64,000 nucleotides of DNA. Source: Huiozyma naganishii CBS 8797 (lineage: Eukaryota; Ascomycota; Saccharomycetes; Saccharomycetales; Saccharomycetaceae). This document shows positions 7,200 to 46,122 of the stretch, in pieces. The stretch's first letter is position 1, and each line of letters begins with the position of its first letter. Location: NCBI RefSeq assembly GCF_000348985.1, contig NC_035932.1:310001-374000 (forward strand), read 5' to 3'. Under the pieces are notes generated by a model that saw only the letters and a program-made list of their open reading frames with translations, searched no databases and was not told where the DNA came from. A program made the translations under genes and the position numbers.

Positions 7200-7281
7200 C
7201 GACAACTGCAGGATTCGAACCTGCGCGGGCAGAGCCCAAAAGATTTCTAATCTTACGCCTTAACCACTCGGCCAAATTGCC
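7200..7281 (-). tRNA. tRNA-Ser(AGA)
   Basis: The minus strand carries an 82-nt tRNA without intron. The acceptor ends pair (GGCAATT... with ...AGTTGTCG, one mismatch). The A box TGGCCGAGTGG and B box GGTTCGAATCC are intact, the anticodon loop reads TTAGAAA (anticodon AGA), and there is a long class-II variable arm as expected for serine. It is nearly identical to the S. cerevisiae tRNA-Ser(AGA) as I remember it. Confidence 0.97.
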
Positions 7282-7935: not shown

Positions 7936-9033
7936 CTACAAATTGGCAGTGTAATGTATTTCACCATCCAATTTTCTTAGTCTTTCAGCGGCCTGTTCAG
8001 CAGTCAAATCTCTTTGTGGTTCTCCAAGCAATTCAAAACCCACCAAAAATTTCCGAACAGTAGCCGATCTCAACAATGGTGGATAGAAATGCAAATGTAA
8101 CCAACTGTGATCCAGCTCCTCCTTGGTTGCATTTAATGGAGCTTGGTGGATACCCATAGAGTATGGGAAGCTGGTTTCAAAGAGATTGTCATATTTCGTG
8201 GTCAAAATCTTCAGCGCACTTGCCAAGTCTCTTTTTTGAGCCTCATTCAACGAAGTGATGTTTGGAATCTTTGTTTTCGCAACAACCATGGTCTCAAATG
8301 GCCAAACAGCCCAGTAGGGGACAACGACCAAAAACGTATCGTTTTCAAACACGGTTCTGGTTTTTTCCTGCATTTCCAGTTCAACGTAGTCTGCTAGCAA
8401 ATCTGTGTGGTTTGCTGCCTTGTATTTATCGAAGGACTTGAACTCTCTAGACACTTCGCTTGGAACGGTTTCCAAACACCACGCTTGCCCATGAGGATGC
8501 AAGTTGGAGCAACCCATAGCGGTACCCTTGTTCTCGAAAATCTGCAAATACTTGAATGGCTTGTGCTCTTCAATTGCCTGCTTAGACAAATCGGTATACA
8601 GTTTTTGCCACGCACCGACAACTTTCACCAAATCATCTTTGGACATAAGTGGCAAGGTAACATTGTGCTTAGGACTGAAACAAATGACGAAACAGTTACC
8701 TCTAACGGATTGAACCTTGAACAGCCTGTTCTTTAGGGAATCTTTGTCACCAGTCTCTTTCAAACTTGGCTGATCAGTTTTAACGGCGGCATAGTCGTTT
8801 TGAAAGATATAAGTAGACTCGTATTTTGGGTTTTTACCCCCTGTTGCCCTGTCATTACCGGGACAAAGAAAGCACTTCTCGTCGTACTCAGGAATGTCCG
8901 GTTTGAAAGGAGCCTCTTGCTGACCCAACCAAGGCCTTTTTGCTCTATGTGGGGAGACCAGAACCCATGAGTCCGTCAACGGATTGTAACGTCTGTGAGA
9001 ATGGTCGGTAAAATCAAATGCACCAGTAGTCAT
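7936..9033 (-). CDS. GAL7: Galactose-1-phosphate uridylyltransferase
   Basis: This 365-residue enzyme transfers UMP from UDP-glucose to galactose-1-phosphate, the second step of the Leloir pathway. The zinc-binding CFLCPGN lies near residue 50. The catalytic HPHGQAW, with the nucleophilic histidine, lies near residue 180, and the second metal and substrate region near the C-terminus includes SWLHLHFYPP. The length matches S. cerevisiae Gal7 (366). The gene is divergent from GAL1 across a 2.07-kb spacer, where S. cerevisiae has GAL10. Two perfect Gal4 sites lie 223-284 bp upstream of its ATG. A TATA-like sequence (minus strand TATTTAAAG, near 9167-9175) is about 135 bp upstream. Strong galactose induction is therefore expected. 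Confidence 0.97.
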   Translation of the reverse strand: MTTGAFDFTDHSHRRYNPLTDSWVLVSPHRAKRPWLGQQEAPFKPDIPEYDEKCFLCPGNDRATGGKNPKYESTYIFQNDYAAVKTDQPSLKETGDKDSLKNRLFKVQSVRGNCFVICFSPKHNVTLPLMSKDDLVKVVGAWQKLYTDLSKQAIEEHKPFKYLQIFENKGTAMGCSNLHPHGQAWCLETVPSEVSREFKSFDKYKAANHTDLLADYVELEMQEKTRTVFENDTFLVVVPYWAVWPFETMVVAKTKIPNITSLNEAQKRDLASALKILTTKYDNLFETSFPYSMGIHQAPLNATKEELDHSWLHLHFYPPLLRSATVRKFLVGFELLGEPQRDLTAEQAAERLRKLDGEIHYTANL

Positions 9034-9255
9034 TCTGATATGTATTTTCTTTGTAGTTTTAGTTGTTTTTCCTTAATTTGTTAAGTGGTTTCTTATACTC
9101 TAACCAAAACGAAAGGGAAGTATCAAGTGGGACCATCTTTAAAGTCATCATGGAAGTGCCGCCTTTAAATATTACTCAAGACTCAAGTCACTGGTGCAAC
9201 TTATTAAGAAGTGCGTCTGCGGTTTGGAACACTCTGATATTAGTCTCCCATGCTA

Positions 9256-9317
9256 CGGACGAGTGTTGTCCGAATGTCAAAATTATTTTTCCCCTCTCTT
9301 CGGAAAACTGTTTCCCG
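9256..9317. promoter_or_regulatory. Gal4 upstream activating sites of GAL7 (two perfect sites)
   Basis: Perfect CGG-N11-CCG motifs stand at 9256-9272 and 9301-9317. Two one-mismatch copies flank them, CGG-N11-CTG at 9220-9236 and TGG-N11-CCG at 9322-9338. CGG-N11-CCG is the established Gal4 dimer site, and the distance to the GAL7 start fits a promoter UAS. Confidence 0.88.
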
Positions 9318-9800
9318 AATATGGAAGCCCTCTTTCCGTGAAGGAAACAGGTATAACGGAGTGGAGAGGATAATTCCCTGGCCCATATTGTGAGTGAAAT
9401 ATTGTGCAAGCGTGAATTAGCAATATCGAAATACTGCATGTTGAAGAGTGCTCATCCTTCAAGGGAAAAAACCAGAAACTTGCCTAATCGTGAGGCCATT
9501 AAAAACTTGAGTGATTGAAATCTCGCTGGTGGAAAATGAAACAAGTGCAGTTTATTGCCTTAATTCTGATACCTGGAAAACGGCAAACCACATGATGATG
9601 CCTTGAGGAACATAGAAAACTACTTGTGACCGTCAACCCAAGCTTCGAAATAGAGAAGTACGGATACGGAATTTTCTTCTAAGCACAAGAAGTGCACTTG
9701 CTATGTTCACTATAATGTCATGAGGAACCTACAAAACGCTGTAAAACTTGATACATTACCGATTTTAGAGAACTGACAAAAAACTGTCTCATAAACGTAT

Positions 9801-9867
9801 TTGCCCCGCACTGCCCCGCACTGCCCCACCTTCCCCATTACGATACAATGAGTTTCAAGAAGCGGGG
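9801..9867. promoter_or_regulatory. Mig1-like GC-box array with 10-bp tandem repeat
   Basis: Three tandem 10-bp units of the form (C/T)TGCCCC(G/A)C(A/C) occupy 9801-9830. On the minus strand they contain GCGGGG, GCGGGG and GTGGGG, all fitting the Mig1 core (G/C)(C/T)GGGG. A further GCGGGG is on the plus strand at 9862-9867. Mig1 represses GAL genes in glucose. The A/T-rich flank that Mig1 prefers is weak next to the tandem copies, so binding is inferred. Confidence 0.5.
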
Positions 9868-10531
9868 AATGTGTTGAAATGTGGAATCAGAACATGCTTA
9901 TCCCAGCTGTTCTATAGGAAAAGTTTTCATGGAAGAAGTTGTCGAGATAATCTTTATGTACTTTTTAATAGAACTGAGCTTACAAGAACGGCTACTGGGA
10001 CCCTACTAGTCCCGTTAAGAGCAACCTGTTTGGGACGGTGGACACGATAAGTCCATCATACGTATTTGATGCCTCATTGAGTGGCTTATCTGTCATTAAG
10101 ACATTAGATATTTCCACATAAGGATGCAGAGAGTTCAGCAGTATGTCAGGCAGAATGCTCCTCGGGGAAAACAGACGGCTAAACGTAGAAACGCCATTAA
10201 TATTTCGCGTCACATACTGATAAGGGAGCGTGGGCAAGGGTCAAAGAGAGTGAAATGGAAGTAGTCAAGATGTGCTACAATGTGGGGCTCTCTTTGCAGT
10301 TGCGAAAGGTGCAGAACGGAAAAGAGAACGCGCTGCTCGAAGCTTCAATTGCACACCTTGCCCCCATACAGCGTACATAGATACGCACATCTGTTGGTTT
10401 CGCTTCCATACCACTTGTAATATGGCTCGAAAGATATACCCTCCTTGCAATACAGCCCATCTTGCTTCTCCCTTACCCCTGGAACCCCGTTCTTAACTAA
10501 GGCAATAGCCATCTGGAAAGTGCTTCTAATT

Positions 10532-10743
10532 CGGCAGTATTGTGTCCGGGGTACTCCGCCCCGACATGGAGTGTGGGGGTCCCCGAACAGATCTTTCTGC
10601 GACGCCAATACGTCGGCACATAGCGCTCCGGAACAGCAGAGTGTCCTGTCCCGTTGCCAGGACTTCGTCGGCCCTTCTTTCCTCGAGAAGAGACGTTAAA
10701 AAGTGGGAAAAAGAGTTTCATGCGTCCGGAACACAGTGCTCCG
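10532..10743. promoter_or_regulatory. Gal4 upstream activating sites of GAL1 (four perfect sites)
   Basis: Perfect CGG-N11-CCG motifs stand at 10532-10548, 10547-10563, 10614-10630 and 10727-10743. The first two share two bases, so only one dimer can probably bind there at a time. The cluster is 364-575 bp upstream of the GAL1 ATG and is comparable to the four-site UAS-G between GAL10 and GAL1 in S. cerevisiae. Confidence 0.93.
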
Positions 10744-11106
10744 TGCACAAGTGTCTCGCACAGAGCCCCTCCTCCCCCCACCTTGCTCACCCCACATATC
10801 ATGCCACATAGGAACGGAGAAGAGTGCAGTTTGCTAAGGTTTCTCCCATGGAGCATACACATCCGAAGATGTACGCTTTCCCTCGACAGTGCTGCAACAG
10901 AGTAAGCAAAGGACATGCCCTCTCCGCAATAAGTTTGGTTTTGTAAGATATAAAAAGCGAGGTGGTCTGCTCTTACCGATAGTCCGAACTGCCCTTTTTA
11001 TTCCTTTCCGTCTTCTTGTGTAAAAAGAGCCCATCAAACTGTTTGTTGATAGAAATCCATCTCAACTCGCTACAACAAATATTATCAAAAAACCTTCCAA
11101 CTAATA

Positions 11107-12657
11107 ATGTCAGTTCCTGTATATCCTTGCAATTCCGACAAATTGCCAAAATCATTGGCTGCTAAATGCCCTGTCATCATCAAAGGGTTCGAAAAGGCCT
11201 TTGGTACAAAACCTGACTTTGTTGCCAGATCTCCAGGTAGAGTGAATTTGATCGGTGAACATATTGACTATGCCGATTTCTCTGTTTTACCTTTGGCTAT
11301 TGACGTCGACATGTTGTTGGCTGTTAAGGCTTTGGATGACAAAAAGCCTTCTATTACTTTGGCCAATGCGGACTCTAGATTTAGCGAGAGAAAGTTTGAC
11401 CTACCATTGGATGGGTCTTACGTCACCATCGACCCAACGATCTCCGACTGGTCTAACTACTTCAAGTGTGGTCTACATGTTGCTGTTGAATACTTGAAGA
11501 AAATTGCACCAGAAAAGTTTGCCAAGGCCCCTGTTAAGGGTCTACAAGTTTACTGTCAAGGTAATGTCCCAACTGGTTCCGGTCTTTCCTCCTCTGCTGC
11601 CTTCATTTGTGCCGTCGCTTTGGCTGTCATCAGAGTAAATATGGGCGACTCTTACGAAGTGTCCAAGAACGACTTGACGAAAATAACAGTTGTTGCCGAG
11701 CATTTGGTCGGTGTTAACAACGGTGGTATGGACCAAGCCGCCTCTGTTTGTGGTGAAGAGGACCACGCGTTGTACGTTGAATTCAAGCCGGAATTGAAGG
11801 CTACACCATTCAAATTCCCAAATTTGAAAAACACTGAGGTTACCTTCGTCATCGCTAACACTTTGGTAGTTTCCAACAAGCAAGAGACCGCTCCAACCAA
11901 CTACAATCTGAGAGTCGTTGAGGTTGTTGCCGCCGCCAACATCTTGGCCAAGAAATATGGTGTTGTCTTGAAGCATGACGGCCCATCCAATTTGAACAAG
12001 GGTAACTTGAGAGACTTTGTGAATGCATACTATGCAAAGTACATGAATGTCGCGGAACCTTGGAACGGCGAGATCACTTCTGGTATCGAACGTTTGACCA
12101 AGATGTTGGAACTGGTCGAAGAAACCTTCGGTGCCAAGAAAAGTGGTTACACTGTTGACGACGCTGCCTCTGCTCTGGGTATTTCCAGCGAGGAATTCAC
12201 CAAGGAATACTTGACTTCATTCCCAGTCAGATTTGACACTTTGAAATTATACCAGAGATCCAAGCACGTTTATGCGGAAGCTTTGAGAGTCTTGAAGGCT
12301 TTGAAGGTTATGACCGGCTCTTCGTTTACCAAGGATGAAGACTTCTTCCGTGAGTTTGGTAATTTGATGAACGAGTCCCAGGAATCATGCGACAAGCTGT
12401 ACAACTGTTCCTGTTCCGAGATCGACAGTCTTTGTCAGATCGCCTTGAACAACGGGTCTGCCGGTTCACGTCTAACTGGTGCCGGTTGGGGTGGCTGTAC
12501 GGTCCACTTGGTTCCAATCGAAAAGGTGGACCAGGTCAAGAAGGCATTGATCGACCAATACTACAAAGTCAAATACCCAAAGATTACAGACGAAGAACTA
12601 AAGGAGGCCATCATTGTTTCCAAGCCAGCACTAGGTTCCTGTGTATGCACTTTGTGA
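11107..12657 (+). CDS. GAL1: Galactokinase
   Basis: This protein of 516 residues phosphorylates galactose at the first step of the Leloir pathway. It has the galactokinase signature [17 protein letters not shown] near residue 45, the ATP-binding [12 protein letters not shown] near 155-166, the catalytic Asp in [11 protein letters not shown] near 205-215, and the C-terminal [15 protein letters not shown]. The Ser-Ala pair in GLSSSAA, missing in the co-inducer Gal3, is intact, so this is an active kinase; in species without GAL3 the same protein also acts as the co-inducer that binds Gal80. S. cerevisiae Gal1 is 528 residues. FUR4 follows, as in S. cerevisiae (YBR020W-YBR021W). Codon use is strongly biased, as expected for a highly expressed gene. 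Confidence 0.97.
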
Positions 12658-13329: not shown

Positions 13330-15291
13330 ATGCCCGAGGATGTTACTGAATATTTCTCCTCTACAAAGAAGTCACACCATCGTAACAGTGAGTATGAGGC
13401 CCTAGACACTTCATCGTATCAGAAATCTGCTTACAGCCGACAAAAGCACGAAACCAATGTGCGAACAATTCCTGTGGGGAGCAGTAGCGCTGTGTCAACG
13501 CATATTTGTGAGGATGAGATGGGGTTTGAAGATACTGAATCACAAGAAAATGAAACGGAGGAGGAAGAGGAGGATCCATTCAAGGATGAGCCCTTTTTCA
13601 AGAGAATCTATCACAAATATTTGATAGTCGATAAATCCATTGCCGATGTTTCCATCTTAGATTCGTTCATGTACAATAGCGATCTAAGGCCTGTGGAGGA
13701 AAGAAGAAGAGCTTGGTCTTGGTTCAACTACTGTTATTTTTGGCTTGCTGAGTGTTTCAATATCAATACATGGCAGATTGCCGCCACAGGTCTACAATTG
13801 GGGCTGAACTGGTGGCAATGTTGGATCACCATTTGGATAGGATACACGTTCGTCGGTATATTTGTATGTCTAGCATCCAGAGCCGGCTCATCTTACCACA
13901 TCTCATTTCCTATAACGACTAGAGCCTCGTTTGGGATTTTCTTCTCATTGTGGCCCATCATCAACAGAATTGTCATGGCTATTGTCTGGTACGCAGTCCA
14001 GTCGTGGTTGGGTGTGGAACCGGTATCTTTGATGCTGCGTTCAATATTCGGTAACGATCTACCAGATAGGATACCAAACCATTTTGGTTCTCCAAACTCC
14101 ACTACATACCAATTCATGTGCTTCATGATTTTTTGGGCATGCGAATTACCATTTCTGTGGGTCCCTCCGCACAAAGTGAGACATTTGTTCACCGTCAAGG
14201 CCGTCTTGGTTCCATTTGGTGCGTTCGGCTTTCTAATCTGGTCAATAAAAAAAGCACATAATAAAATTGCATTGGGTAGTTTGACCGATACTCAGCTGAC
14301 GGGTACAGCATTTTCATGGGCATTCTTGAGAAGTTTGATGGGTTGTATGGCCAATTTTTCCACGTTGACCCTAAATGCACCTGATTTTTCGAGGTTTGCC
14401 AAGACAAAGAATGCAGCTCTCTATTCGCAGCTGATTTGTATCCCATTTTTATTTTCGATTACTTGTTTGATTGGTATCTTGGTCACCGCTGCAGGGTATG
14501 AAATGTACGGTATCAACTATTGGTCACCTGTGGAAGTCTTAGAACAATATTTGATAAGAAGTTACACTAAGGGCACAAGAGCTGGCGTATTTTTGATATC
14601 GTTTGTTTTCGCTGTAGCACAGTTGGGGGCCAACATTTCTGCGAACTCGTTATCCTGCGGTACTGACTTGACTGCCATTTTACCGAAATTTTTGAATATC
14701 AGACGTGGTTCCATCTTTTGTGCGTGTATGGCGCTGTGCATTTGTCCATGGAATATGATGTCAACATCTTCAAAGTTTACAATGGCACTGTCAGCGTACG
14801 CCATTTTCTTGTCCAGTATTGCGGGGGTCATATGTTCCGATTACTTTGTTGTCAGAAGAGGGTATTTGAAATTAACCCATCTGTACTCGAACAGAAAGGG
14901 TTCGTTTTACATGTACGGTAACAAATACGGTATTAACTGGAGGGCGTTAGTAGCATACTTATGTGGTGTTGCCCCAAATCTGCCCGGGTTCATTGGTGAT
15001 GTCGGTGCCCCCAAAATCACAGTCTCCATTGGTGCAATGAGAGTTTACTACCTCAGTTACTGGGTAGGGTATGCTATCAGTTTTCTTGCGTATACCATTC
15101 TTTGTTACTTATTCCCCGTACCAGGCCAACCAGTGAAGAATATCTTGAAGGATAAGGGCTGGTTTCAGATATGGGCCGATGTGGAGAATTTTGAAGAGGA
15201 GTGGCTCGAAACTCTGGAAAAGGAGGACCTCTATGACGACGTTGTCAGCGTTGATGTGCACGACAGCGATGAAAAGAAGTACTTTTATTAA
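13330..15291 (+). CDS. FUR4: Uracil permease of the NCS1 family
   Basis: This plasma-membrane uracil/proton symporter of 653 residues closely follows S. cerevisiae Fur4 (633). About residues 1-110 are hydrophilic with an acidic run (ETEEEEEDPF) near residue 78, the part where Fur4 is phosphorylated and ubiquitinated for endocytosis. The transporter core starts with RRAWSWFNYCYFWLAECFNI and GLNWWQCWITIWIG and has about twelve membrane segments, including the NCS1 blocks PITTRASFGIFFSLWP, FSRFAKTKNAALYSQL and SLSCGTDLTAILP. The related uridine (Fui1) and allantoin (Dal4) permeases are alternatives, but similarity and the place next to GAL1 favour FUR4. Confidence 0.95.
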   Translation: MPEDVTEYFSSTKKSHHRNSEYEALDTSSYQKSAYSRQKHETNVRTIPVGSSSAVSTHICEDEMGFEDTESQENETEEEEEDPFKDEPFFKRIYHKYLIVDKSIADVSILDSFMYNSDLRPVEERRRAWSWFNYCYFWLAECFNINTWQIAATGLQLGLNWWQCWITIWIGYTFVGIFVCLASRAGSSYHISFPITTRASFGIFFSLWPIINRIVMAIVWYAVQSWLGVEPVSLMLRSIFGNDLPDRIPNHFGSPNSTTYQFMCFMIFWACELPFLWVPPHKVRHLFTVKAVLVPFGAFGFLIWSIKKAHNKIALGSLTDTQLTGTAFSWAFLRSLMGCMANFSTLTLNAPDFSRFAKTKNAALYSQLICIPFLFSITCLIGILVTAAGYEMYGINYWSPVEVLEQYLIRSYTKGTRAGVFLISFVFAVAQLGANISANSLSCGTDLTAILPKFLNIRRGSIFCACMALCICPWNMMSTSSKFTMALSAYAIFLSSIAGVICSDYFVVRRGYLKLTHLYSNRKGSFYMYGNKYGINWRALVAYLCGVAPNLPGFIGDVGAPKITVSIGAMRVYYLSYWVGYAISFLAYTILCYLFPVPGQPVKNILKDKGWFQIWADVENFEEEWLETLEKEDLYDDVVSVDVHDSDEKKYFY

Positions 15292-15705: not shown

Positions 15706-18700
15706 ATGAATAACGATGACTACCATTTGCATTTGGACGAAGAGTTGCTTCTCCGGGATAGGCGCGGCTCATTGAGGTCGAATTTGCCTCGTAGACAAGG
15801 TTCGCTCGTTAGGCCTGAAAGAAACAGATTAAATAATCCCAAAGATCCGCATTACTACTACGCGAAGAAGACACAAGAGCATGCGGATCGGTTGAACGTC
15901 CAAACTTCCGCTACTGGGGTAAACCCTCCATTCTACGGACCTTCGAGAAACTCACTGTTGTCCGAAAACATGGCCTACAATAATAGGTTTAGAGAGAGCA
16001 GTAGTTATCCAATGCAAGAGATGCCCAATGAGGACACAGGCTCATCTCACTCCGAGGACGCTGCCCCATCGCAGAATCCATTCAACGATACCCCGCCAAT
16101 AAGACATGCGGCGAAACCTTTAGAACCTAGCAAAGGTGTCTCTGTATGGCAGATATACTGCCGAGTCATTACATTCTGGATACCAGGCCCCGTTTTAACT
16201 TTATTCGGGATGCCAAAGAAGGAGAGGCAAATGGCTTGGAGGGAAAAGATTGCGATCCTTTCCGTAATCGTGTATATCGGAGCAATTATCGCATATCTAA
16301 CCTTCGGGTTTACGAAAACTGTATGTGGAGCACCGTCACTACGTTTGCAATCAGATGACGTTTCGTCGGGATACGTTTCAGCAAATGGAAAACTGTACCT
16401 TTTCGATGGTACCGGTACCGAAGGCAGCGACCTAGAAGCCGATGGTGTGAGCAAAATACGAGGCCCTTGGACAACTGCTGGAAAAGACGTCTCTTTCCTT
16501 TTCCAAAATGTTAATGGAAATTGCCATAATGTGATTGTACCCAGAGATAACTCCTCGATACCCCATGATGATAACAACAACCTCGCATGGTATTTTCCTT
16601 GTAAAGTCAGAGACATTGATGGATCCACTAAACCAAACTTTACGGCTTCTGAGCATTATGATGGGTGGGGCTGCCATACCTCCGAGAGTGCCAGGAAAAG
16701 TTTCTACAGTCTAAAAAGTGAGGCCGACGTCTATTTCACCTGGGACAGCTTGGCAAATTCCTCTCGAAACCTAGTGGTATACAACGACGATGTCCTAGAT
16801 TTGGACTTGTTGAAATGGCTAGATAAAGATCAATTAGAATACCCTCCGATATTTGACGATTTATTGAACTCGCAACTGCAAGGCTATGATCTTTCGATCG
16901 TTTTGTCGACTGCATATGAGAGGAAAATTGCAAGGTGCTTAAGCGAAACCATAAAAGTGGGGGGTATCGATTCTAGGACTGTTGGTTGCATTGCATCAGA
17001 TGTTGTACTTTACGTTTCCCTCGTGTTTATCCTGTCCGTCGTTGTGGCTAAATTTGCTGTAGCATGCTATTTCAGATGGGTTGTTTCCAGAAAGCAAGGT
17101 GTGGGTTTTCTCGAGAATGATCGCATGAATGATTACCTAAATGCTATCGAGGACTGGTCTGAGAATCCAAACGGCCCTGGAACTCTGCACCAAAGTAATT
17201 CATTAGCCTCCGGGAACACCACTTTTAACGGTGTCGAAGAAAACAAAACAAACAGAAAAGCAAATGCGACGAGAAGCAATAACTTCATTGATAACTCCGA
17301 TTTGTCTGTAGAATTTAGAAACGCAACCACCATGTCACTACAAAACGCCCAAAAAATAGCCGATAAAGAATCGCGGGCCAACTTTACCGAGCATAAAAAT
17401 GACTCTTTGTATCCGTCAAACTCAACTATAATGGACGGCCTAACAGAATCTCGCGATTCAATTTATCATCCTCCAGAGACTTTAGACCCCACCATTATCC
17501 ATCACGACAGTGTCCAACAACCTCCTGTTGAATATAAACCTTTTGGCTACCCACTGGCCCATACCATATGCTTTGTCACTTGTTATTCAGAAAACGAACA
17601 AAGTTTGAGAGCGACATTAGATTCCTTGGCTGTGACCGACTACCCTAACTCCCATAAACTTCTGATGGTAGTGTGTGATGGTCTGATCAAAGGTTCAGGA
17701 AACGACAAAATTACACCAGAAATTGCTCTAGATATGATGGAAGACTTTACAACCCCCCCTGAAGATGTTCTTCCTTACTCTTACGTTGCCGTTGCGTCCG
17801 GTTCAAAAAGACACAACATGGCCAAAATATACGCTGGGTTTTACAAGTTTGATGATAGTACAGTACCTTCAGATAAACAGCTCCGTGTTCCTATAGTCAC
17901 TATTGTTAAATGTGGCACTGCAGAAGAACAGGGATCTGCGAAACCAGGAAACAGAGGTAAACGTGATTCTCAGATAATATTGATGTCTTTTTTGCAGAAG
18001 ATTACGTTTGATGAAAGAATGTCTGAATTGGAATTCCAGCTACTGAAAAATATATGGCAACTGACTGGTTTAATGGCCGATTTCTACGAAACTGTTCTAA
18101 TGGTTGATGCTGATACAAAGGTCTTTCCTGACTCTTTAAAACACATGGTCGCAGAAATGGTAAAAGACCCATCAATTATGGGCCTATGTGGCGAGACAAA
18201 AATCGCAAACAAAAGTCAGTCATGGGTCACAGCAATCCAGGTCTTTGAATATTTCGTTTCCCATCATCAGGCGAAGGCATTTGAATCTGTGTTTGGCTCT
18301 GTTAGTTGTCTTCCCGGTTGCTTTTCTATTTATCGGATCAAGGCTCCTAAAGGTTCTGACGGTTACTGGGTACCCATTTTAGCAAATCCTGACATTGTTG
18401 AGCGTTACTCAGACAACGTTACCGACTCTTTGCACAAGAAAAATTTGCTACTGCTAGGAGAAGATAGGTACCTGTCTTACTTGATGCTGAAAACGTTCCC
18501 CAGGAGAAAGCAAATATTCTTACCGAAAGCCGCCTGCAAAACAATCGTACCTGATACCTTCAAAGTCCTGCTATCTCAACGTCGTCGTTGGATTAATTCC
18601 ACTGTCCACAATCTGTTTGAATTGGTCCTGATCCGAGATCTCTGCGGTACCTTCTGTTTTTCTATGCAATTTGTCATCTTCATCGAACTGATGGGTACTT

Positions 18701-19119
18701 TGGTTTTACCTTTGGCAATTTGCTTCACCATTTACGTGATCATTTTTGCTATTGTATCCACACCAACTCCCATTATCACACTGGTGTTGTTAGCTGTCAT
18801 CCTTGGTCTACCCGGTGTTTTGGTTGTGGTTACGGCAACCAAATGGTCGTACCTAATGTGGATGGCAATCTATATTGCCGCTCTGCCAATATGGAATTTT
18901 GTGCTTCCAACATACGCATACTGGAAATTCGATGACTTTTCTTGGGGCGAAACCAGAACCATTGCCGGAAGCAACAAAAAGTTAGAAGACGATGTTGAGG
19001 GTGAATTCGACTATAGCAGTATACAGATGAAGACTTGGCGTGAATATGAAAATAGAGACCGCTTGGAAAACAATGAGTTTATGGGGAATAGCAGAGATAG
19101 CCCGTTGTTTGACTCATGA
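15706..19119 (+). CDS. CHS3: Chitin synthase III catalytic subunit
   Basis: This polytopic glycosyltransferase of 1137 residues makes most of the cell-wall chitin from UDP-GlcNAc (S. cerevisiae Chs3, 1165 residues). A polar N-terminal region (about 1-140) precedes two membrane segments (near 165 and 190), a long lumenal loop with several N-glycosylation sequons, and another segment near 435. The catalytic domain shows CFVTCYSENEQSLRATLDSL, LMVDADTKVFPDSL, GEDRYLSYL and the product-binding SQRRRWINS, followed by the C-terminal membrane cluster. In S. cerevisiae the order is FUR4-POA1-CHS3; here CHS3 comes first and the CHS3-POA1 pair is inverted. Confidence 0.97.
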   Translation: MNNDDYHLHLDEELLLRDRRGSLRSNLPRRQGSLVRPERNRLNNPKDPHYYYAKKTQEHADRLNVQTSATGVNPPFYGPSRNSLLSENMAYNNRFRESSSYPMQEMPNEDTGSSHSEDAAPSQNPFNDTPPIRHAAKPLEPSKGVSVWQIYCRVITFWIPGPVLTLFGMPKKERQMAWREKIAILSVIVYIGAIIAYLTFGFTKTVCGAPSLRLQSDDVSSGYVSANGKLYLFDGTGTEGSDLEADGVSKIRGPWTTAGKDVSFLFQNVNGNCHNVIVPRDNSSIPHDDNNNLAWYFPCKVRDIDGSTKPNFTASEHYDGWGCHTSESARKSFYSLKSEADVYFTWDSLANSSRNLVVYNDDVLDLDLLKWLDKDQLEYPPIFDDLLNSQLQGYDLSIVLSTAYERKIARCLSETIKVGGIDSRTVGCIASDVVLYVSLVFILSVVVAKFAVACYFRWVVSRKQGVGFLENDRMNDYLNAIEDWSENPNGPGTLHQSNSLASGNTTFNGVEENKTNRKANATRSNNFIDNSDLSVEFRNATTMSLQNAQKIADKESRANFTEHKNDSLYPSNSTIMDGLTESRDSIYHPPETLDPTIIHHDSVQQPPVEYKPFGYPLAHTICFVTCYSENEQSLRATLDSLAVTDYPNSHKLLMVVCDGLIKGSGNDKITPEIALDMMEDFTTPPEDVLPYSYVAVASGSKRHNMAKIYAGFYKFDDSTVPSDKQLRVPIVTIVKCGTAEEQGSAKPGNRGKRDSQIILMSFLQKITFDERMSELEFQLLKNIWQLTGLMADFYETVLMVDADTKVFPDSLKHMVAEMVKDPSIMGLCGETKIANKSQSWVTAIQVFEYFVSHHQAKAFESVFGSVSCLPGCFSIYRIKAPKGSDGYWVPILANPDIVERYSDNVTDSLHKKNLLLLGEDRYLSYLMLKTFPRRKQIFLPKAACKTIVPDTFKVLLSQRRRWINSTVHNLFELVLIRDLCGTFCFSMQFVIFIELMGTLVLPLAICFTIYVIIFAIVSTPTPIITLVLLAVILGLPGVLVVVTATKWSYLMWMAIYIAALPIWNFVLPTYAYWKFDDFSWGETRTIAGSNKKLEDDVEGEFDYSSIQMKTWREYENRDRLENNEFMGNSRDSPLFDS

Positions 19120-23379: not shown

Positions 23380-24276
23380 ATGTTGAAGAGACAGTTATTC
23401 GCCGGTAGGTCGTTGAAGGTTGTGCGAGGGGTGCCCCTGCAATTGAGGAGTTGTATATCTACCAGTTCCATGAAATACAATAAACAAGACCCCTCGCTAG
23501 TTGAAGAGATCAACAAGATCAAATTGAGTGATATTAAAATTGGCTCTGACAGTGGTCAAACGAGTCAAATTTTGAGGAACGGAACAACTCCGACCAGGAA
23601 TAAGCAAGGGATGTCTACAGCGCAGATTCTTCTCTTACTGGGTGCTCTCGGTGCTGGTGTCTATTACTGGGCTTCAAAAGAGAAGCAGAGACTTGAAGTG
23701 GAGAGGGAGGCAGAATCCAATAGGGCGGCAGTGGGGGGATCCTTTAATTTAATCGATCAAGATGGGCGTCCGTTTTCCAGTGACAAACTTTTGGGTAAAT
23801 TCAGTCTGTTGTATTTTGGGTTCACGCATTGTCCCGATATATGCCCTGCGGAACTGGACAAAATGGCATTTTGGGTCGATGAAATAAAGAAACAGTTGAA
23901 GATGGACGTGCAACCCATATTTGTCACCTGTGACCCGCAAAGGGATACACCAGATGTCATGAAGAGGTACTTGAAAGATTTCCACTCGAAAATAATAGGG
24001 TTGACAGGCTCGCATTCGCAGATAAAGGATATGTGTGCCAAGTACAAAGTTTTCTTTTCAACCCCAGAAAACGTAACTGCAAAGGACGATTACATTGTCG
24101 ATCATTCGACATTTATCTATCTGATCGACCCTGAAGGCTCGTTTATCGACGGGTTAGGCACTATTTACGACGAGAAGGAAGGGCTCGAGAAAGTGAAGGC
24201 GCAGATTAATGCGTATGTGCCGCGATTGGAAAGAGAGAAGAGAATGGGGAGGTGGTACTCGTTTCTGTTCAAGTGA
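23380..24276 (+). CDS. SCO1: Copper chaperone for cytochrome c oxidase (Sco1/Sco2)
   Basis: This mitochondrial inner-membrane protein of 298 residues delivers copper to the CuA site of Cox2. The sequence begins with a basic, Ser- and Leu-rich presequence, then one membrane segment (ILLLLGALGAGVYYWA near residue 85) and a thioredoxin-like domain with the copper ligands CPDIC and the distal His in IVDHSTFIYLID. S. cerevisiae Sco1 has 295 residues and Sco2 301. The ATG at 23380 is the first in frame; the extension above it starts with GTG. The neighbours are those of SCO1 on one side (CHS2, CSG2) and of SCO2 on the other (OLA1, ETR1), so one gene here stands in the place of both; only the generic function is certain. 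Confidence 0.93.
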   Translation: MLKRQLFAGRSLKVVRGVPLQLRSCISTSSMKYNKQDPSLVEEINKIKLSDIKIGSDSGQTSQILRNGTTPTRNKQGMSTAQILLLLGALGAGVYYWASKEKQRLEVEREAESNRAAVGGSFNLIDQDGRPFSSDKLLGKFSLLYFGFTHCPDICPAELDKMAFWVDEIKKQLKMDVQPIFVTCDPQRDTPDVMKRYLKDFHSKIIGLTGSHSQIKDMCAKYKVFFSTPENVTAKDDYIVDHSTFIYLIDPEGSFIDGLGTIYDEKEGLEKVKAQINAYVPRLEREKRMGRWYSFLFK

Positions 24277-26058: not shown

Positions 26059-27282
26059 ATGCTCCGCAGAGTAGCGTGGTTTACGGCCGTGATTGGGTAC
26101 GTGATACAGACCAAGGGCTTCTCGATTATACAGTCGAAGAAGTTCATGGACGTCGACCCTGCGAAGGAGAGCAGTGCGAAGCTCAATGGGTTCTCCAACG
26201 AGGAGATGAAGCGATGCATGACCATATACCTGGCCTTCATATATTTTGTCTCGCTGCTACTGCTATTACCGATAACAAGTTTCTTTACGGATAAAATCGG
26301 GTCCATGGGCAGTGGGTACTCGCGAGTACCAGACGGTACAGACGAAAGAGAGAACATGGTGAGCAACTCTTCAGAGGAGGAGTACGAATTGCAGAATATC
26401 GTGTCGCCAAGACCTTCGGCGCTGAGTCTCGATTTGACTTTACAATTGGACACAAGTGCAGCTCATTCACAGGACACTGCGATATCTACGAAATCTACTG
26501 TCCAATACATTGGGAAGTTGCTCTTCTTGACCATTTTCACCATGATCCCAGTTTTCACGTACATGCTGGCTCTGTCGTTGTCCCCCGCGTTCGATGTCGC
26601 GTTGATCCAAAACACAGCCGTGTTCGAGATCGTAACGTTACTCTACGGTGTGTGTGGTATCGCTAGGAAGAACCACGTGTTCAGGAATTTCCTCGTCATG
26701 ATGGCAGCACTCGCTAGCATACAGGTTATCTCGTACACAAAGGCCACCTGCGACATGCTGGCGGGGAAACTGTCCATCAACCCAAGTACGGGGGAAGTGA
26801 CCGACCTGTTCCTGTTTGACAGACTCAAGGCGTCGCTCATCTGTGGGCTCGGGTCGCTTTCTGTGGGGGTCTTCGCAGTGATGTGGCACAGGTGGTTCGG
26901 TAAACCATCTGCCTCGCTCATCCAGCAGAGCTCACACTTGTCGCTGATCGGTATCATGTCCATCATCCTGTTGCTCCCCTTTGTGCCCGATTTGAAACTG
27001 AGCTACCAGGTCATCTCTTTTTACTACGCTGACAAAACATTCTGGCTCACGTTGATGGGGTCCCTGTTCTTTGGTACCGTGCCATGTCTGTTCTCTCTAC
27101 TACATTTGAACAAGAAAAATCCACCAGAGTTTGTCACAACGGTGAATCTGGGATCGATAATATTCATGGGACTGGCAGAATGGTTGACAGAACCAATACA
27201 GACAACTATTGTCAGATGGGAGGTCATCGGGTACATTGTCCTTGTTTTGAGCTGTATATTTCTATCAATGACGCTGCGTTAG
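26059..27282 (+). CDS. CSG2: Csg2, regulatory subunit for inositolphosphorylceramide mannosylation
   Basis: This ER membrane protein of 407 residues (S. cerevisiae Csg2, 410) partners with the mannosyltransferases Sur1/Csg1 and Csh1 in making mannosyl-inositolphosphorylceramide; loss makes yeast calcium-sensitive. The sequence has a short N-terminal hydrophobic segment, a segment near residue 60 (LAFIYFVSLLLLLPI), a polar acidic loop (about 75-150), and about seven to eight further membrane segments. No enzymatic motif is visible, as expected for a regulatory subunit. The neighbours SCO and CHS2 match YBR036C-YBR038W, with OLA1 inserted between SCO and CSG2. Confidence 0.92.
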   Translation: MLRRVAWFTAVIGYVIQTKGFSIIQSKKFMDVDPAKESSAKLNGFSNEEMKRCMTIYLAFIYFVSLLLLLPITSFFTDKIGSMGSGYSRVPDGTDERENMVSNSSEEEYELQNIVSPRPSALSLDLTLQLDTSAAHSQDTAISTKSTVQYIGKLLFLTIFTMIPVFTYMLALSLSPAFDVALIQNTAVFEIVTLLYGVCGIARKNHVFRNFLVMMAALASIQVISYTKATCDMLAGKLSINPSTGEVTDLFLFDRLKASLICGLGSLSVGVFAVMWHRWFGKPSASLIQQSSHLSLIGIMSIILLLPFVPDLKLSYQVISFYYADKTFWLTLMGSLFFGTVPCLFSLLHLNKKNPPEFVTTVNLGSIIFMGLAEWLTEPIQTTIVRWEVIGYIVLVLSCIFLSMTLR

Positions 27283-35807: not shown

Positions 35808-37346
<1,539 letters not shown>

Positions 37347-37521
37347 TCAAACAGGAGCAATTGGAGGATCCACGGGAGTAACACGACGGTTTTCAGTATC
37401 GCAGATGAGTCCTGATCTGTATCCATCAGTTCGAGGCGGATACATGAACAATTTCTAAAATTTCAGTAAACAGTGAAAGTAAGCGGTTTTAAAGAGAGAC
37501 GCCACTCGTAAACAACAACAG

Positions 37522-37527
37522 ACGCGT
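37522..37527. promoter_or_regulatory. MCB-like ACGCGT in the CDC7-ERP3 promoter
   Basis: One perfect ACGCGT, the MBF core, lies 191 bp upstream of the CDC7 ATG and 38 bp upstream of ERP3. A single six-base site can occur by chance. Confidence 0.35.
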
Positions 37528-37564
37528 TACGTGACTTGGCGTGCAACCATCCTGCTAAGCCCCC

Positions 37565-38266: not shown

Positions 38267-38342
38267 GTCCCCGTGCAATTGGCAACTGCAATTGCAACTG
38301 GGCGAGTTATTGCTGTGCGAAATTGGGTGAAATTTTTCTGGA

Positions 38343-38348
38343 GAGTCA
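38343..38348 (-). promoter_or_regulatory. Bas1/Gcn4-type TGACTC upstream of ADE1
   Basis: TGACTC on the minus strand lies 134 bp upstream of the ADE1 ATG, close to a TATATAAGG at 38409-38417. Bas1-Bas2 and Gcn4 activate ADE genes through TGACTC in S. cerevisiae. A six-base match is weak alone. Confidence 0.4.
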
Positions 38349-39408: not shown

Positions 39409-39431
39409 CCGTGTGTAACGTACGTAGCCAG

Positions 39432-42051: not shown

Positions 42052-45000
42052 ATGAGTGATTCGGAGGGTGCTGTCGTGGAAGGCCCCTCGAGCAAGCCGC
42101 TGCTGAAACTACAACTGCTGGAGGTGCTACGCGATGGGTCCTTTGAGAGTCTGTCGCAGCTGGTGGGCACACATTTCAAGCCCATGGAGAACCCGATAGT
42201 GCAGGAATTGGCGCCGCTGCTGCTGCACTACGCGGTGCAAGTCGCGCCGTTGAAGTTGATTAAAGAGGTTGTCGCGAACTGGGTACGCAAGCCGGAAGTC
42301 TCGTTGTCTGTGGTCGGTGTGCCGCTGCAGTTAAACACGAGGGACGAGTTCGGGAACACTCCCTTGCATCTGGCTGCGGCGCAGTCGAGAACGAAAGTCA
42401 TCGAGTTCCTGCTAGAACAGCCAGATATAGATGAAACGGTGCTTAACGACGACGGGAGGATGCCCATCGACATGTGTTCAAACTTGAACGTGGCGGACAT
42501 GATGCAGATTTATAGGTCGAACTACGCCGCTGGGGTTATCAAGGCCGCGTACGAGGGATTCCATAAGAGGGACTTCAAGTCCTTGGAGAAACTGTTCACG
42601 GATAGCAGGAACAAAGAGTTCCTCGACATCAACAAATTCGCGCTGGAGAACTCGCACAGGTTTGTACTGTACGACTACGTAAAGAGGAAAGACGTGGAGA
42701 TGTGTCGGTGGTTGTTGGACCACGGCGCGTCCCCTCTCATTAAGAACCCGAACGGGGTCAGCGCGCTGGACCTTATCCGCCATCAGCAGAAACACCAGCC
42801 ATCGGGGGCGAAAACGCAACTGAGCGAGCTGTTTAGCGCCATGGTCGAGGAGGAACGTGTCCTGAACGCAACAAAGAGCCTCAAGGAGGCCCCCACGTAC
42901 AAGGGCTATTTGAAGAAATACGCAAACTTGGGGAAAGGTTACAAACTGCGGTACTTCGTTTTGGACAGCGACGGGAAACTTTCGTACTACAAGAACCCTT
43001 CTGCTGTTGGTAGTCCATGTCGCGGTAGTCTCAACTTAGCGTCATGCGTCCTGCACATGAACTCCACAGAGAAACTGAAGTTCGAGGTCATCGGAGGCAG
43101 TAACAGTTCCGCGAAGTGGAGACTGAAGGGTAACCACCCAGTGGAGACGAATAACTGGGTCATGGTCATCCAAAGTGCCATCAGGTACGCGAAGGACAAA
43201 AACAGGGTCAAGAAGACGAACACGAACGTCACACCGGCAATGGCCGTGAACGACCCAAGCAGCTCGTCCATTGTAACGGAAAGTATGATCCACCACAATA
43301 TGCAAGAGGCAAACGGTTGCGCCAACAATGTCACCCCGGGCAGCATACCTTTCCCTCGTGTGCACAGGTCAAGAACCATTGAGGGCCCCTTCCCGAAATC
43401 CCCAACACAGATGAGCGCGATGCGGTTCCCAAATCGGAAAGCTAGCAGGTCCACTTCAATTAACTCTGGTGATGTAGAGATGAGCAAAAACTTGACAGAG
43501 TCAGGTAAGAGCTACATTACACAGGTTATTGGGTCTCGCCTAGAGGGGTCTACTGCGACGCTGACAAAGCATAAGTCGAACGACACCGTGGGAATGAAAC
43601 CCCTCGCTGCACCAGTAAAATTGCCCGCGTTCATGACCTCCAATTCAGGGATCTCGTACATGAGCGGTGACAACTCGAGTGTCAGATCGTTATCTGCAGG
43701 GAGCGCCAATGGGAACTCCGCCGATGCAGTCGCAGGCGTTTACCAAGACGGTTTTGTCGACAACGAGGACACCGATTCGGAGGATGACGAAGACGCGGCC
43801 ATCTACGACAAGGACGAGGAATACTTGAAAGTGGAGTACGGGCCATTTGTGGAAAAGTTGAGCTTGTACCAGAAGACCATTGGTCTTGAGTTGAACTCGA
43901 TCAATGAGATTTTGGGATCTACCGACTACCACCAAACACCCGCTGAACTTGAAACGATCAAGACTTCTTTACAGAGACTGTCGCAGAATATTGTGGAGAT
44001 GAACCAGCTGACGATCAAGAGAGACGAGAAGTTGGTCAACATGTTGACCAAGCAACGGGACATGAACAATGTGTGGATCAACACCATGAAGGACCTGGAG
44101 ATCGAACTGGCCGACAAATCTGAGAGACTGGCTACTTTGGGCAGGGGCCGTAACACTTTAAAGAGGACACTGAGAAAGAAGAGACTAGAAAACCAGTCCA
44201 AGAGTAACCAGGTGTCCTTTGACAACGTGGCGTCGCTGAAGGTTAACGCCGGTGATCAACCTGACGACACATTGGCTGATATTGCGAGGTTCATCACCGC
44301 GACAAAGGACGAGGATGAACAATCTGACGCTGACGAATTCTACGATGCGGAGGAACTGCTAGACGATTTGGAGATGGAGGGCACAAGAAGCATCACATCT
44401 GGCGGCGCCTTGTCGTATACGAAGACCAACGAGGAGGAAGTGCACCAGCCAGCGTCTGAGGAGCCAAGAGCGATTGATTCGCAACTGGATGAGGAAGAGC
44501 TCACCATGAGACCAGCAAGGGTACAGCGCGTTGTTTATGCCCCTGTCTCAGATGATGTGCAGCATACGTTTACCGAAAAGTCTGGTATGATACCACAGGG
44601 TAATGTGGAAGAGGCGTTGGAGGCTAAGCAGAAAATGGCATCCTTCATCAGTGGTGAAAGGGCAAGAGAAGCTGGTGAGATACAAGCGAGCAAAGAGAAG
44701 GAGAATGCTGGTGAGGTACAAGCGAGCAAAGAGAAGGAGAATGCCGATGAGGCAGTCTCAACCCATGAACCTGTTGCTGCCAACAAGGAAAGCGGGTCGA
44801 AGCAGCTGGTCCCCAAGCACCCTGTTGGGTTGACAAAGAGTCAGAAGGAGAAGGAGTTGTTTCTGTGGAAGGAAGGCTCGTTCCTTGGTTACGAGGACGG
44901 TGTTCGGAAACGGTTGCGGTTGTCTCAAGATGACAGGCCTAAAGTTAGTCTGTGGACTGTACTAAAATCGATGATTGGTAAAGATATGACACGGATGACT

Positions 45001-46122
45001 TTACCCGTAGTGTTCAACGAACCCACTTCATTATTGCAAAGGGTCGCCGAGGATTTGGAGTTTTCCAACCTACTTGATGACGCTGCGACGTTCCCTGATT
45101 CTACTTTGAGATTGCTTTACGTTTCCATTTTCACTGCATCGTGCTACGCGTCGACAGTAGACAGAATTGCGAAACCGTTCAACCCATTGCTCGGGGAGAC
45201 CTTTGAGTATTCCCGTCCTGACAAGAACTACCGGTTTTTCGCTGAGCAAGTGTCACACCATCCTCCAATCTCTGCGACATGGACGGAGGCTCCCAAATGG
45301 GATTTCTGGGGGGAGAGTGCCGTGGACACGAACTTCAACGGGCGTTCGTTTGGTGTGAAGCATTTGGGTCTGTGGTATATCAAGCTGCGTCCTGACAACG
45401 GCGACCCTGAGGAGTTGTACACTTACAAGAAGCCAGACAACACTGTGATCGGTATCCTTGTTGGGAACCCGCAGGTGGACAACCACGGGGAGGTGCGGAT
45501 AGTGAACCACACGAACGGGGAGTACTGTGTGTTGAACTTCAAAGCTCGTGGGTGGAGGTCCTCTAGTGCGTACGAGATGAAAGGTGAAGTGTTCGACAAG
45601 AACAACAAGAAGATGTGGGTTATTGGTGGACGGTGGAACGACTCGATCTACGCGAAGCGTGTGACGGGCAAGGGTTCCTCTGGAGACATCGGACTGGACC
45701 ACAAGTCGAAGGGCACAGCCCGGGAGAGCACAAAGCCGGACTACGAGGGGCACAAGTTCCTTGTTTGGAAGGCGATCAAGAGGCCTCCAGCCCCCTTCAA
45801 CTTGACCCCATTCGCGATCACACTGAACGCGCCACAGAAACATCTTGTCCCCTGGCTACCCCCCACTGACACGCGTCTAAGACCAGACCAGCGTGCGATG
45901 GAGGAGGGCGAGTACGATAAGGCCGCTGAGGAGAAGAACCGTGTTGAGGAGAAACAGCGTGCCGTGCGCAAGACCCGGGAACAAGAGGGCACCAAGTACG
46001 AGCCCCGCTGGTTCGCCCGGGACGTGCACCCTGTCACGAAGAAGCCCTTCTGGCACTACAAGGGTGAGTACTGGACCCTGCGTGAGTCCAAGAAGCTCGC
46101 GGGCGAGGGCGATATCTTCTGA
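42052..46122 (+). CDS. Long oxysterol-binding protein homologue (Osh1/Osh2)
   Basis: This 1356-residue lipid-transfer protein is longer than S. cerevisiae Swh1/Osh1 (1188) and Osh2 (1283). Domains run in order: ankyrin repeats (about 50-250, with FGNTPLHLAAAQSRTKVIEFL), a PH domain (about 281-380, starting YKGYLKKYANLGKGYKLRYF), a disordered and coiled-coil linker, an FFAT motif EFYDAEE at 762-768 that binds VAP/Scs2 at the ER, and the lipid-binding ORD, with the signature EQVSHHPPIS from about 1065. It would act at ER-Golgi, nucleus-vacuole or plasma-membrane contacts in sterol and PI4P exchange. Two 36-bp tandem copies (44674-44745) encode GEIQASKEKENA-type units in the linker. The neighbours include both YAR035W (SWH1 side) and YDL020C (OSH2 side), so it could be the counterpart of either. 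Confidence 0.95.
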   Translation: MSDSEGAVVEGPSSKPLLKLQLLEVLRDGSFESLSQLVGTHFKPMENPIVQELAPLLLHYAVQVAPLKLIKEVVANWVRKPEVSLSVVGVPLQLNTRDEFGNTPLHLAAAQSRTKVIEFLLEQPDIDETVLNDDGRMPIDMCSNLNVADMMQIYRSNYAAGVIKAAYEGFHKRDFKSLEKLFTDSRNKEFLDINKFALENSHRFVLYDYVKRKDVEMCRWLLDHGASPLIKNPNGVSALDLIRHQQKHQPSGAKTQLSELFSAMVEEERVLNATKSLKEAPTYKGYLKKYANLGKGYKLRYFVLDSDGKLSYYKNPSAVGSPCRGSLNLASCVLHMNSTEKLKFEVIGGSNSSAKWRLKGNHPVETNNWVMVIQSAIRYAKDKNRVKKTNTNVTPAMAVNDPSSSSIVTESMIHHNMQEANGCANNVTPGSIPFPRVHRSRTIEGPFPKSPTQMSAMRFPNRKASRSTSINSGDVEMSKNLTESGKSYITQVIGSRLEGSTATLTKHKSNDTVGMKPLAAPVKLPAFMTSNSGISYMSGDNSSVRSLSAGSANGNSADAVAGVYQDGFVDNEDTDSEDDEDAAIYDKDEEYLKVEYGPFVEKLSLYQKTIGLELNSINEILGSTDYHQTPAELETIKTSLQRLSQNIVEMNQLTIKRDEKLVNMLTKQRDMNNVWINTMKDLEIELADKSERLATLGRGRNTLKRTLRKKRLENQSKSNQVSFDNVASLKVNAGDQPDDTLADIARFITATKDEDEQSDADEFYDAEELLDDLEMEGTRSITSGGALSYTKTNEEEVHQPASEEPRAIDSQLDEEELTMRPARVQRVVYAPVSDDVQHTFTEKSGMIPQGNVEEALEAKQKMASFISGERAREAGEIQASKEKENAGEVQASKEKENADEAVSTHEPVAANKESGSKQLVPKHPVGLTKSQKEKELFLWKEGSFLGYEDGVRKRLRLSQDDRPKVSLWTVLKSMIGKDMTRMTLPVVFNEPTSLLQRVAEDLEFSNLLDDAATFPDSTLRLLYVSIFTASCYASTVDRIAKPFNPLLGETFEYSRPDKNYRFFAEQVSHHPPISATWTEAPKWDFWGESAVDTNFNGRSFGVKHLGLWYIKLRPDNGDPEELYTYKKPDNTVIGILVGNPQVDNHGEVRIVNHTNGEYCVLNFKARGWRSSSAYEMKGEVFDKNNKKMWVIGGRWNDSIYAKRVTGKGSSGDIGLDHKSKGTARESTKPDYEGHKFLVWKAIKRPPAPFNLTPFAITLNAPQKHLVPWLPPTDTRLRPDQRAMEEGEYDKAAEEKNRVEEKQRAVRKTREQEGTKYEPRWFARDVHPVTKKPFWHYKGEYWTLRESKKLAGEGDIF
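44674..44745. repeat. 36-bp tandem duplication inside the OSH gene
   Basis: Two adjacent 36-bp units (44674-44709, 44710-44745) differ at two bases and keep the frame, adding a charged 12-residue unit to the linker before the lipid-binding domain. The near identity shows a recent duplication. Confidence 0.9.

What the first reader, a model, noticed from the sequence alone, without database searches (positions are those of the whole stretch)
9034..11106. Galactose cluster without GAL10 but with two full Gal4-site clusters
GAL7 and GAL1 face away from each other with 2.07 kb between their start codons and no epimerase/mutarotase gene, though GAL10 stands there in S. cerevisiae. Regulation has not decayed: six perfect CGG-N11-CCG sites remain, two next to GAL7 and four next to GAL1. 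The Leloir pathway needs an epimerase, so GAL10 must be elsewhere, perhaps on the sister copy of this region after the whole-genome duplication. The spacer has about 1.2 kb between the two UAS clusters, less than a GAL10 gene.
Basis: partly seen in the sequence, partly recalled or inferred. Interest (0 to 1): 0.75.

Follow-up and report, generated by a model that had tools for sequence, protein, structure and literature searches.

The report
Yeast galactose cluster split in two
In the yeast Kazachstania naganishii the classic three-gene galactose cluster has been divided between the two copies of one ancient duplicated region, with GAL7 and GAL1 at one site and GAL10 beside a second galactokinase gene about 38 kb away, and database gene numbers suggest that relatives divided it in the same or the opposite way.

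Summary
GAL7 (7936-9033, -) and GAL1 (11107-12657, +) diverge across 2,073 bp with six CGG-N11-CCG sites (0.36 expected) and no trace of GAL10. Two of the six overlap by 2 bp, so at most five can be filled at once.

The host is Kazachstania (Huiozyma) naganishii CBS 8797. Its only GAL10 found lies on the same chromosome at C11:277604-279673, 38 kb from GAL7, divergent from a second galactokinase, with four Gal4-type sites between. Five collinear paralogue pairs indicate sister copies of one duplicated region. GAL4 and GAL80 are present.

Added here: the spacer carries an old solo LTR (about 9872-10140). Consecutive locus tags imply the same split in Vanderwaltozyma polyspora and Tetrapisispora phaffii, and the reverse ({GAL1,GAL10}+{GAL7,second kinase}) in K. 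africana and Naumovozyma dairenensis. GAL7 groups by species rather than by locus; GAL10 leans the same way without a firm rejection. Two clusters may have persisted and exchanged sequence before sorting. Ten paper searches listed no description. Expression and growth were not tested.

The parts
7936..9033 (-). GAL7, galactose-1-phosphate uridylyltransferase, 365 aa; the only copy found in the genome
   Evidence: PF01087, PF02744; one match
9256..9272 (.). Gal4-type site CGG-N11-CCG, 223 bp upstream of GAL7
9301..9317 (.). Gal4-type site, 268 bp upstream of GAL7
9872..10140 (.). decayed solo LTR of a Ty-like retrotransposon, in the space between the two site groups; TG...CA ends, 4 of 5 bp target-site duplication (GAATG/GTATG)
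   Evidence: 12 other matches in the genome at 68-76%; of five copies whose ends I printed (287-301 bp) three have a perfect 5-bp duplication and two have 4 of 5, read by eye; edges of this copy set by eye
10532..10548 (.). Gal4-type site on the GAL1 side (overlaps the next by 2 bp)
10547..10563 (.). Gal4-type site on the GAL1 side (overlaps the previous by 2 bp); the only one of the six that fits the fuller recalled consensus
10614..10630 (.). Gal4-type site on the GAL1 side
10727..10743 (.). Gal4-type site, 364 bp upstream of GAL1
10949..10954 (+). TATA-like box of GAL1 (TATAAA), consensus match only
11107..12657 (+). GAL1, galactokinase, 516 aa, groups with GAL1-type kinases
13330..15291 (+). 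FUR4-like permease (PF02133); FUR4 flanks GAL1 in S. cerevisiae (recalled)
15706..19119 (+). CHS3-like chitin synthase; paralogue at C11:262190-265408 (58% identity)
23380..24276 (+). SCO1/2-like; paralogue at C11:260932-261825 (54%)
26059..27282 (+). CSG2-like; paralogue at C11:259574-260713 (41%)
42052..46122 (+). OSH oxysterol-binding protein; paralogue at C11:240000-242912 (41% over 408 aa; that frame runs off the fetched stretch)
7200..7281 (-). tRNA-Ser(AGA) beside GAL7; identical inverted copy at C11:285924-286005

Best explanation
The ancestral cluster GAL7-GAL10-GAL1 was doubled by the yeast whole-genome duplication and the two copies were thinned in complementary ways. The copy in this window kept GAL7 and GAL1 with their own Gal4 sites (two and four) and lost GAL10. 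The sister copy kept GAL10 in its ancestral place, divergent from the second galactokinase and with four shared Gal4 sites, and lost GAL7. The Leloir pathway therefore remains complete, encoded at two sites on one chromosome and held together in trans by Gal4 and Gal80 rather than by adjacency. Shown: gene content, site counts, absence of a detectable relic, one GAL10 and one GAL7 found, collinear paralogue pairs, and presence of GAL4 and GAL80. Inferred: origin by whole-genome duplication, retention of GAL10 in place rather than a move, Gal4 occupancy and galactose induction, and an inducer or kinase role for the second galactokinase.
For: One GAL10 at C11:277604-279673, named KNAG_0K01390 in the database. 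One GAL7 and two galactokinases. Four CGGN11CCG sites in the 1,128-bp kinase-GAL10 spacer against 0.195 expected, P 5e-5; 0 of 2,000 shuffles reach four. Collinear inverted paralogue pairs OSH, CSG2, SCO, CHS3, galactokinase. A PDR-type ABC transporter (PF06422) lies one ORF away from the second kinase, as SNQ2 lies near GAL3 in S. cerevisiae (recalled); PMC6196229 (passages) gives V. polyspora SNQ2 homologues 1037.47 and 1036.28, consecutive with its two galactokinases Kpol_1037p46 and Kpol_1036p27. The second kinase groups with Kpol_1036p27, TPHA_0M00650, KAFR_0C00810 and NDAI_0G01860 (95/89). GAL4 with its zinc cluster is on C4; GAL80 (74% identity) is on C7 with a Gal4-type site 284 bp before the start of the match.
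Against: No expression or growth data. If GAL10 had simply stayed on the sister copy since the duplication, it should group with the V. polyspora and T. phaffii GAL10 genes, which also lie beside the second kinase; instead the best tree puts it with K. africana and N. dairenensis, whose GAL10 lies beside GAL1. Strict locus-wise descent was rejected in two row sets (AU 1e-6, an unfair set; 1.9e-4) but not in two others (0.13; 0.058). For GAL7 locus-wise descent is rejected (0.0027 and 0.00013). Exchange between the copies, or a move, is therefore needed for at least GAL7. In the kinase tree Saccharomyces GAL1 and GAL3 group together (94/95), so GAL3 itself does not fall in the second-kinase clade. 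Of the ten sites at the two loci only two (one each) fit the fuller recalled Gal4 consensus.
Confidence: 0.82

Rival explanations
1. GAL10 moved. A single GAL10 beside GAL1 in the Kazachstania ancestor was copied into the sister locus (by ectopic recombination through the similar kinase genes or Gal4 sites) and then lost from the GAL1 locus.
For: GAL10 of K. naganishii nests with K. africana and N. dairenensis GAL10, which lie beside GAL1 by locus tags.
Against: It sits exactly in the ancestral slot and orientation (ancestral order recalled). T. phaffii and V. polyspora also have GAL10 beside the second kinase by locus tags. A close relative appears to have a second-kinase-type gene, GAL10 and GAL7 on one 11,292-bp contig (equal contig lengths), so that locus probably held a full cluster. 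Only short matches (best E 0.007, 32 bp) remain between the two spacers.
Confidence: 0.2
2. The second locus is a later segmental duplication on the same chromosome, not the whole-genome-duplication sister.
For: Both blocks lie on one chromosome, inverted, with the GAL genes about 38 kb apart.
Against: Paralogue identities are low (64, 58, 54, 41, 41%), the other ORFs of the two blocks found no such collinear partner, and the second kinase belongs to a clade with second kinases of several other post-WGD genera.
Confidence: 0.04
3. The window locus is a dying cluster in a strain that does not use galactose; GAL10 loss is part of pathway decay.
For: No growth data were seen for this species: one search, 15 of 18 papers listed; the two papers opened gave none.
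Against: Open frames of all three enzymes and GAL80 are uninterrupted, GAL4 is open as far as fetched, and sites are clustered at both loci.
Confidence: 0.05

Closest known systems
S. cerevisiae GAL7-GAL10-GAL1 cluster (chromosome II) and the GAL3 locus (chromosome IV)
   Same: GAL7 and GAL1 orientation, FUR4-like gene after GAL1, Gal4-type sites, GAL4 and GAL80 present; the second kinase lies near a PDR-type ABC transporter, as GAL3 does near SNQ2 (S. cerevisiae layout recalled)
   Different: GAL10 is missing from between GAL7 and GAL1 and stands beside the second kinase. The second kinase lacks the two-residue gap that S. mikatae GAL3 shows in the GLSSS motif, so it may still phosphorylate galactose.
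V. polyspora and T. phaffii GAL loci (by consecutive locus tags)
   Same: {GAL7,GAL1} at one locus and {GAL10,second kinase} at the other
   Different: Their GAL10 and GAL7 sequences are not the closest to those of K. naganishii
K. africana and N. dairenensis GAL loci (by consecutive locus tags)
   Same: cluster split over two kinase-bearing loci
   Different: Opposite assignment: {GAL1,GAL10} and {GAL7,second kinase}. The N. dairenensis kinase beside GAL10 is a 348-aa record.

Membership tests
Gal4-regulated GAL locus of Saccharomycetaceae | GAL7 and GAL1 intact with their family domains | tested here: met
Gal4-regulated GAL locus of Saccharomycetaceae | clustered CGG-N11-CCG sites above chance | tested here: met
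Gal4-regulated GAL locus of Saccharomycetaceae | GAL4 and GAL80 in the genome | tested here: met
Gal4-regulated GAL locus of Saccharomycetaceae | galactose induction | not testable with these tools
   no expression data
Contiguous GAL7-GAL10-GAL1 cluster | all three enzymes adjacent | tested here: not met
   GAL10 is at C11:277604-279673
WGD sister (ohnolog) region | collinear paralogues on both sides | tested here: met
   five pairs in inverted order
WGD sister (ohnolog) region | one ancestral region in undoubled relatives matching both | not tested
   I read no yeast genome other than the window's own
GAL3 (co-inducer without kinase activity) | loss of two residues in the GLSSSAA motif (recalled as the Gal3 hallmark; seen in S. 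mikatae GAL3) | tested here: not met
   the K. naganishii second kinase reads GLSSSTAF without a gap
Solo LTR of an LTR retrotransposon | dispersed unit with TG...CA ends and short target-site duplication | tested here: met
   the window copy is decayed (4 of 5 duplication bases)

The most novel reading that the evidence does not exclude
Two complete GAL clusters survived side by side long after the whole-genome duplication. Their kinases diverged into two roles, while GAL7 and GAL10 were kept alike by gene conversion between the loci. Each lineage then independently dropped one copy of each enzyme, so that in five sampled species each locus keeps one kinase and one other enzyme, with the assignment reversed between K. 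naganishii, V. polyspora and T. phaffii on one hand and K. africana and N. dairenensis on the other.
Probability: 0.4. Interest if true: 0.7.

Novelty: new variant of a known kind. Interest (0 to 1): 0.55.

Why it matters
The GAL cluster is the textbook case of a metabolic gene cluster thought to be kept together by selection. Here it was broken up and shared between two duplicated loci while its regulatory sites stayed, and relatives seem to have done so in opposite ways. If that holds, it is a natural set of replicates for asking what adjacency of GAL genes is worth, how long duplicated clusters exchange sequence, and whether reciprocal loss of GAL7 or GAL10 could contribute to hybrid incompatibility between lineages.

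Tried and rejected
GAL10 relic in the spacer: not found by protein or DNA. GAL7 relic in the kinase-GAL10 spacer or in the stretch after GAL10: nothing convincing (best E 0.009 and 0.062 with 42 queries). Galactokinase queries gave 54 weak hits at E up to 1 in the stretch after GAL10; the best eight (E 0.009-0.026) fall on 37-40 residues near C11:281.8-281.9 kb. I took them as chance without a shuffle test. An SNQ2 relic between GAL1 and the FUR4-like gene: none (best E 0.10). CEN-like motif scan over C11:240-374 kb: no match. The LTR query found nothing in the phage collection (not an informative collection for it). PMC10651018 was opened for galactose growth but its 'naganishii' is Ogataea. 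The gene I first called THI74-like is CSG2 by Pfam. An inversion between the two tRNA-Ser genes was considered as the cause of the split and set aside: it would not change which genes lie outside them.

Full report
What is there. GAL7 (7936-9033, -) and GAL1 (11107-12657, +) are intact and face away from each other across 2,073 bp. Six CGG-N11-CCG sites lie in that spacer. The whole window has 12 against 9.27 expected (25 of 100 shuffles reach 12), so the excess is confined to the spacer: 0.36 expected there at the genome rate of 1,877 per 10.85 Mb (the reversed control pattern gives 1,349), Poisson P 2e-6, and 0 of 2,000 dinucleotide shuffles reach six. Of spacings 5 to 17, six matches are at N11, one at N6, none elsewhere. 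Sites 10532 and 10547 overlap by two bases, so at most five can be filled at once. Only one of the six (10547) also fits the fuller consensus CGGRNNRCYNYNCNCCG, which I recalled; genome-wide that pattern has 22 matches against 7 for its reversed control.

No GAL10 in the spacer. With 45 GAL10 proteins the best tblastn score is 21.6 bits, while 40 shuffled spacers reach up to 25.0. The K. naganishii GAL10 DNA gives nothing better than E 2.5. What does lie in the middle is a dispersed repeat. Window 9318-10531 matches 12 other places in the genome at 68-76%. I compared ten fetched stretches that hold such copies and printed the ends of five: they are 287-301 bp, begin TGTTGA and end AACA; three of the five are flanked by a perfect 5-bp duplication and the other two by four of five bases, read off by eye. 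The window copy, about 9872-10140, has TG...CA ends and GAATG/GTATG flanks. I read it as an old solo LTR. Six of the other copies (L046-L050, L052) are 80-92% alike, while the window copy matches at 68-76%, so the insertion is probably old; three further copies (L053-L055) are only 72-79% like those six. Whether the insertion preceded or followed the loss of GAL10 cannot be told. No tRNA was found in the fetched stretches around these copies.

Where GAL10 is. The genome (13 contigs, 10.85 Mb) is that of Huiozyma (Kazachstania) naganishii CBS 8797: the database names its GAL10 KNAG_0K01390 (taxonomy). GAL10 is single as far as found at C11:277604-279673 (+). The window is C11:310001-374000, so GAL10 ends 38 kb from GAL7. 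Divergent from it at C11:274907-276475 (-) is a second galactokinase, 64% identical to GAL1. Their 1,128-bp spacer holds four CGGN11CCG sites against 0.195 expected, P 5e-5; at other spacings it has one each at N8, N10 and N15. One of the four fits the fuller consensus. One GAL7 was found. GAL4 is on C4: the dimerisation family match is 22.4 bits over a cut-off of 22, and the frame, fetched in part, has the zinc cluster. GAL80 is on C7, 74% identical to a recalled S. cerevisiae Gal80, with a Gal4-type site 284 bp before the start of the match; a 50% identical second gene is on C2. The pathway and its switch are therefore complete in sequence.

Sister copies. ORFs of C11:240-374 kb compared with each other give five paralogue pairs in one order, inverted: OSH, CSG2, SCO, CHS3 and galactokinase. 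Single-gene orientations depart from this for CHS3 and CSG2. Other matches among these ORFs are protein kinases and chitin synthases of large families, one low-complexity match, a tandem pair at 254.9-259.1 kb, and a small match between 271795 and 282823. One ORF away from the second kinase is a PDR-type ABC transporter (PF06422), like SNQ2 near GAL3 in S. cerevisiae (recalled). PMC6196229 (passages only) places the two V. polyspora SNQ2 homologues at 1037.47 and 1036.28, consecutive with its two galactokinases Kpol_1037p46 and Kpol_1036p27.

Relatives. I read no other yeast genome, so neighbours are inferred from consecutive locus tags. V. polyspora: GAL7 1037p45 and kinase p46; GAL10 1036p26 and kinase p27. 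T. phaffii: kinase 0A04230 and GAL7 0A04240; kinase 0M00650 and GAL10 0M00660. K. africana: kinase 0F02420 and GAL10 0F02430; GAL7 0C00800 and kinase 0C00810. N. dairenensis: kinase 0A07270 (348 aa) and GAL10 0A07280; kinase 0G01860 and GAL7 0G01870. Each list shows only 120 of thousands of hits, so further copies in these species are not excluded.

Trees. Kinases (58 of 120 listed plus the second K. naganishii kinase): 18 rows form a second-kinase clade (95/89) with K. naganishii, K. africana, N. dairenensis, V. polyspora, T. phaffii, H. blattae and M. exigua members; Saccharomyces GAL1 and GAL3 instead group with each other (94/95). Two of the three long rows that the program warns of (TPHA_0M00650, Kpol_1036p27) lie in this clade. 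GAL10 (41 of 120 listed): the K. naganishii gene nests with K. africana and N. dairenensis (97/91 and 95/97), not with V. polyspora and T. phaffii; in the 33-row set the same forks have lower support (79/75 and 89/87). Forcing locus-wise clades gave AU p 1e-6 (three rows, an unfair set because close relatives were shut out), 0.13 (33-row set, eight rows dropped), 0.058 and 1.9e-4 (full set; the last includes a row from a GAL1-type contig). So GAL10 leans towards species-wise grouping without a firm rejection of the alternative. GAL7 (40 of 120 listed; 24-row set): the K. naganishii gene falls with the 11,292-bp contig and K. africana (96/97 and 94/93), whose GAL7 lie beside second kinases; locus-wise clades are rejected at 0.0027 and 0.00013, though deep branches of this tree are weak and some are at odds with accepted yeast relationships (recalled). 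The groups were defined by gene location, but I had seen the trees before testing.

Reading. The cluster was doubled and then thinned in complementary ways. GAL10 in K. naganishii stands in the ancestral position and orientation beside the second kinase, which favours retention in place. The GAL7 trees, and less firmly the GAL10 trees, call for sequence exchange between the two loci before loss, or for moves. The second kinase keeps GLSSSTAF without the gap that S. mikatae GAL3 shows, and the conserved GMDQ, so it may be both inducer and kinase.

Print. Ten searches of the held open-access library listed no title or abstract opening that describes this split (one search listed 15 of 18 papers, 15 of 16; the others all). 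I read passages of PMC5089864, PMC6196229, PMC8084343, PMC10651018 and PMC11017505; the rest I saw as listings and abstract openings. Nearest in print: PMC6196229 remarks that members of the GAL10/aldose-1-epimerase similarity group lie near SNQ2 homologues of pre- and post-WGD yeasts, without discussing the GAL cluster in the passages I saw; PMC8084343 scored which species have clustered GAL genes, but its per-species data were not seen. Subscription papers and the Yeast Gene Order Browser were not available, and the gene order itself is open to anyone browsing these genomes, so I claim a new variant, not a first sighting.

Noticed in passing
C11:240000-276475 and window 11107-46122: Two sister regions lie on one chromosome in inverted order on either side of a stretch of YBL/YDL-type genes (gene names recalled), as if two duplicated arms had been joined around one centre.
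   Followed up: partly
C11:281309-294209: A 12.9-kb stretch with no open frame over 148 codons, GC 39%, 60 N, one tRNA-Ser, one copy of the LTR-like repeat and a short frame similar to the 541-aa ORF at 271795, which has no Pfam match.
   Followed up: partly
window 7200-7281 and C11:285924-286005: Two identical tRNA-Ser(AGA) genes (82 of 82 bases) in inverted orientation 31 kb apart, at the edges of the segment between the two GAL loci.
   Followed up: partly
kinase tree: Saccharomyces GAL1 and GAL3 group with each other rather than with the two post-WGD kinase types, which suggests gene conversion in that genus.
   Followed up: no
G000:C2:41368-42621: A second GAL80-like gene, 50% identical to the recalled S. 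cerevisiae Gal80 query, beside the main one on C7 (74%).
   Followed up: no
N. dairenensis record P0059 (NDAI_0A07270): The GAL1-type kinase beside GAL10 is only 348 aa and lacks the third Pfam domain, so the second-type kinase may be the only complete galactokinase listed for that species.
   Followed up: no
window 36001-52000: GC is 52-57% over about 16 kb against 41-50% in the rest of the window.
   Followed up: no
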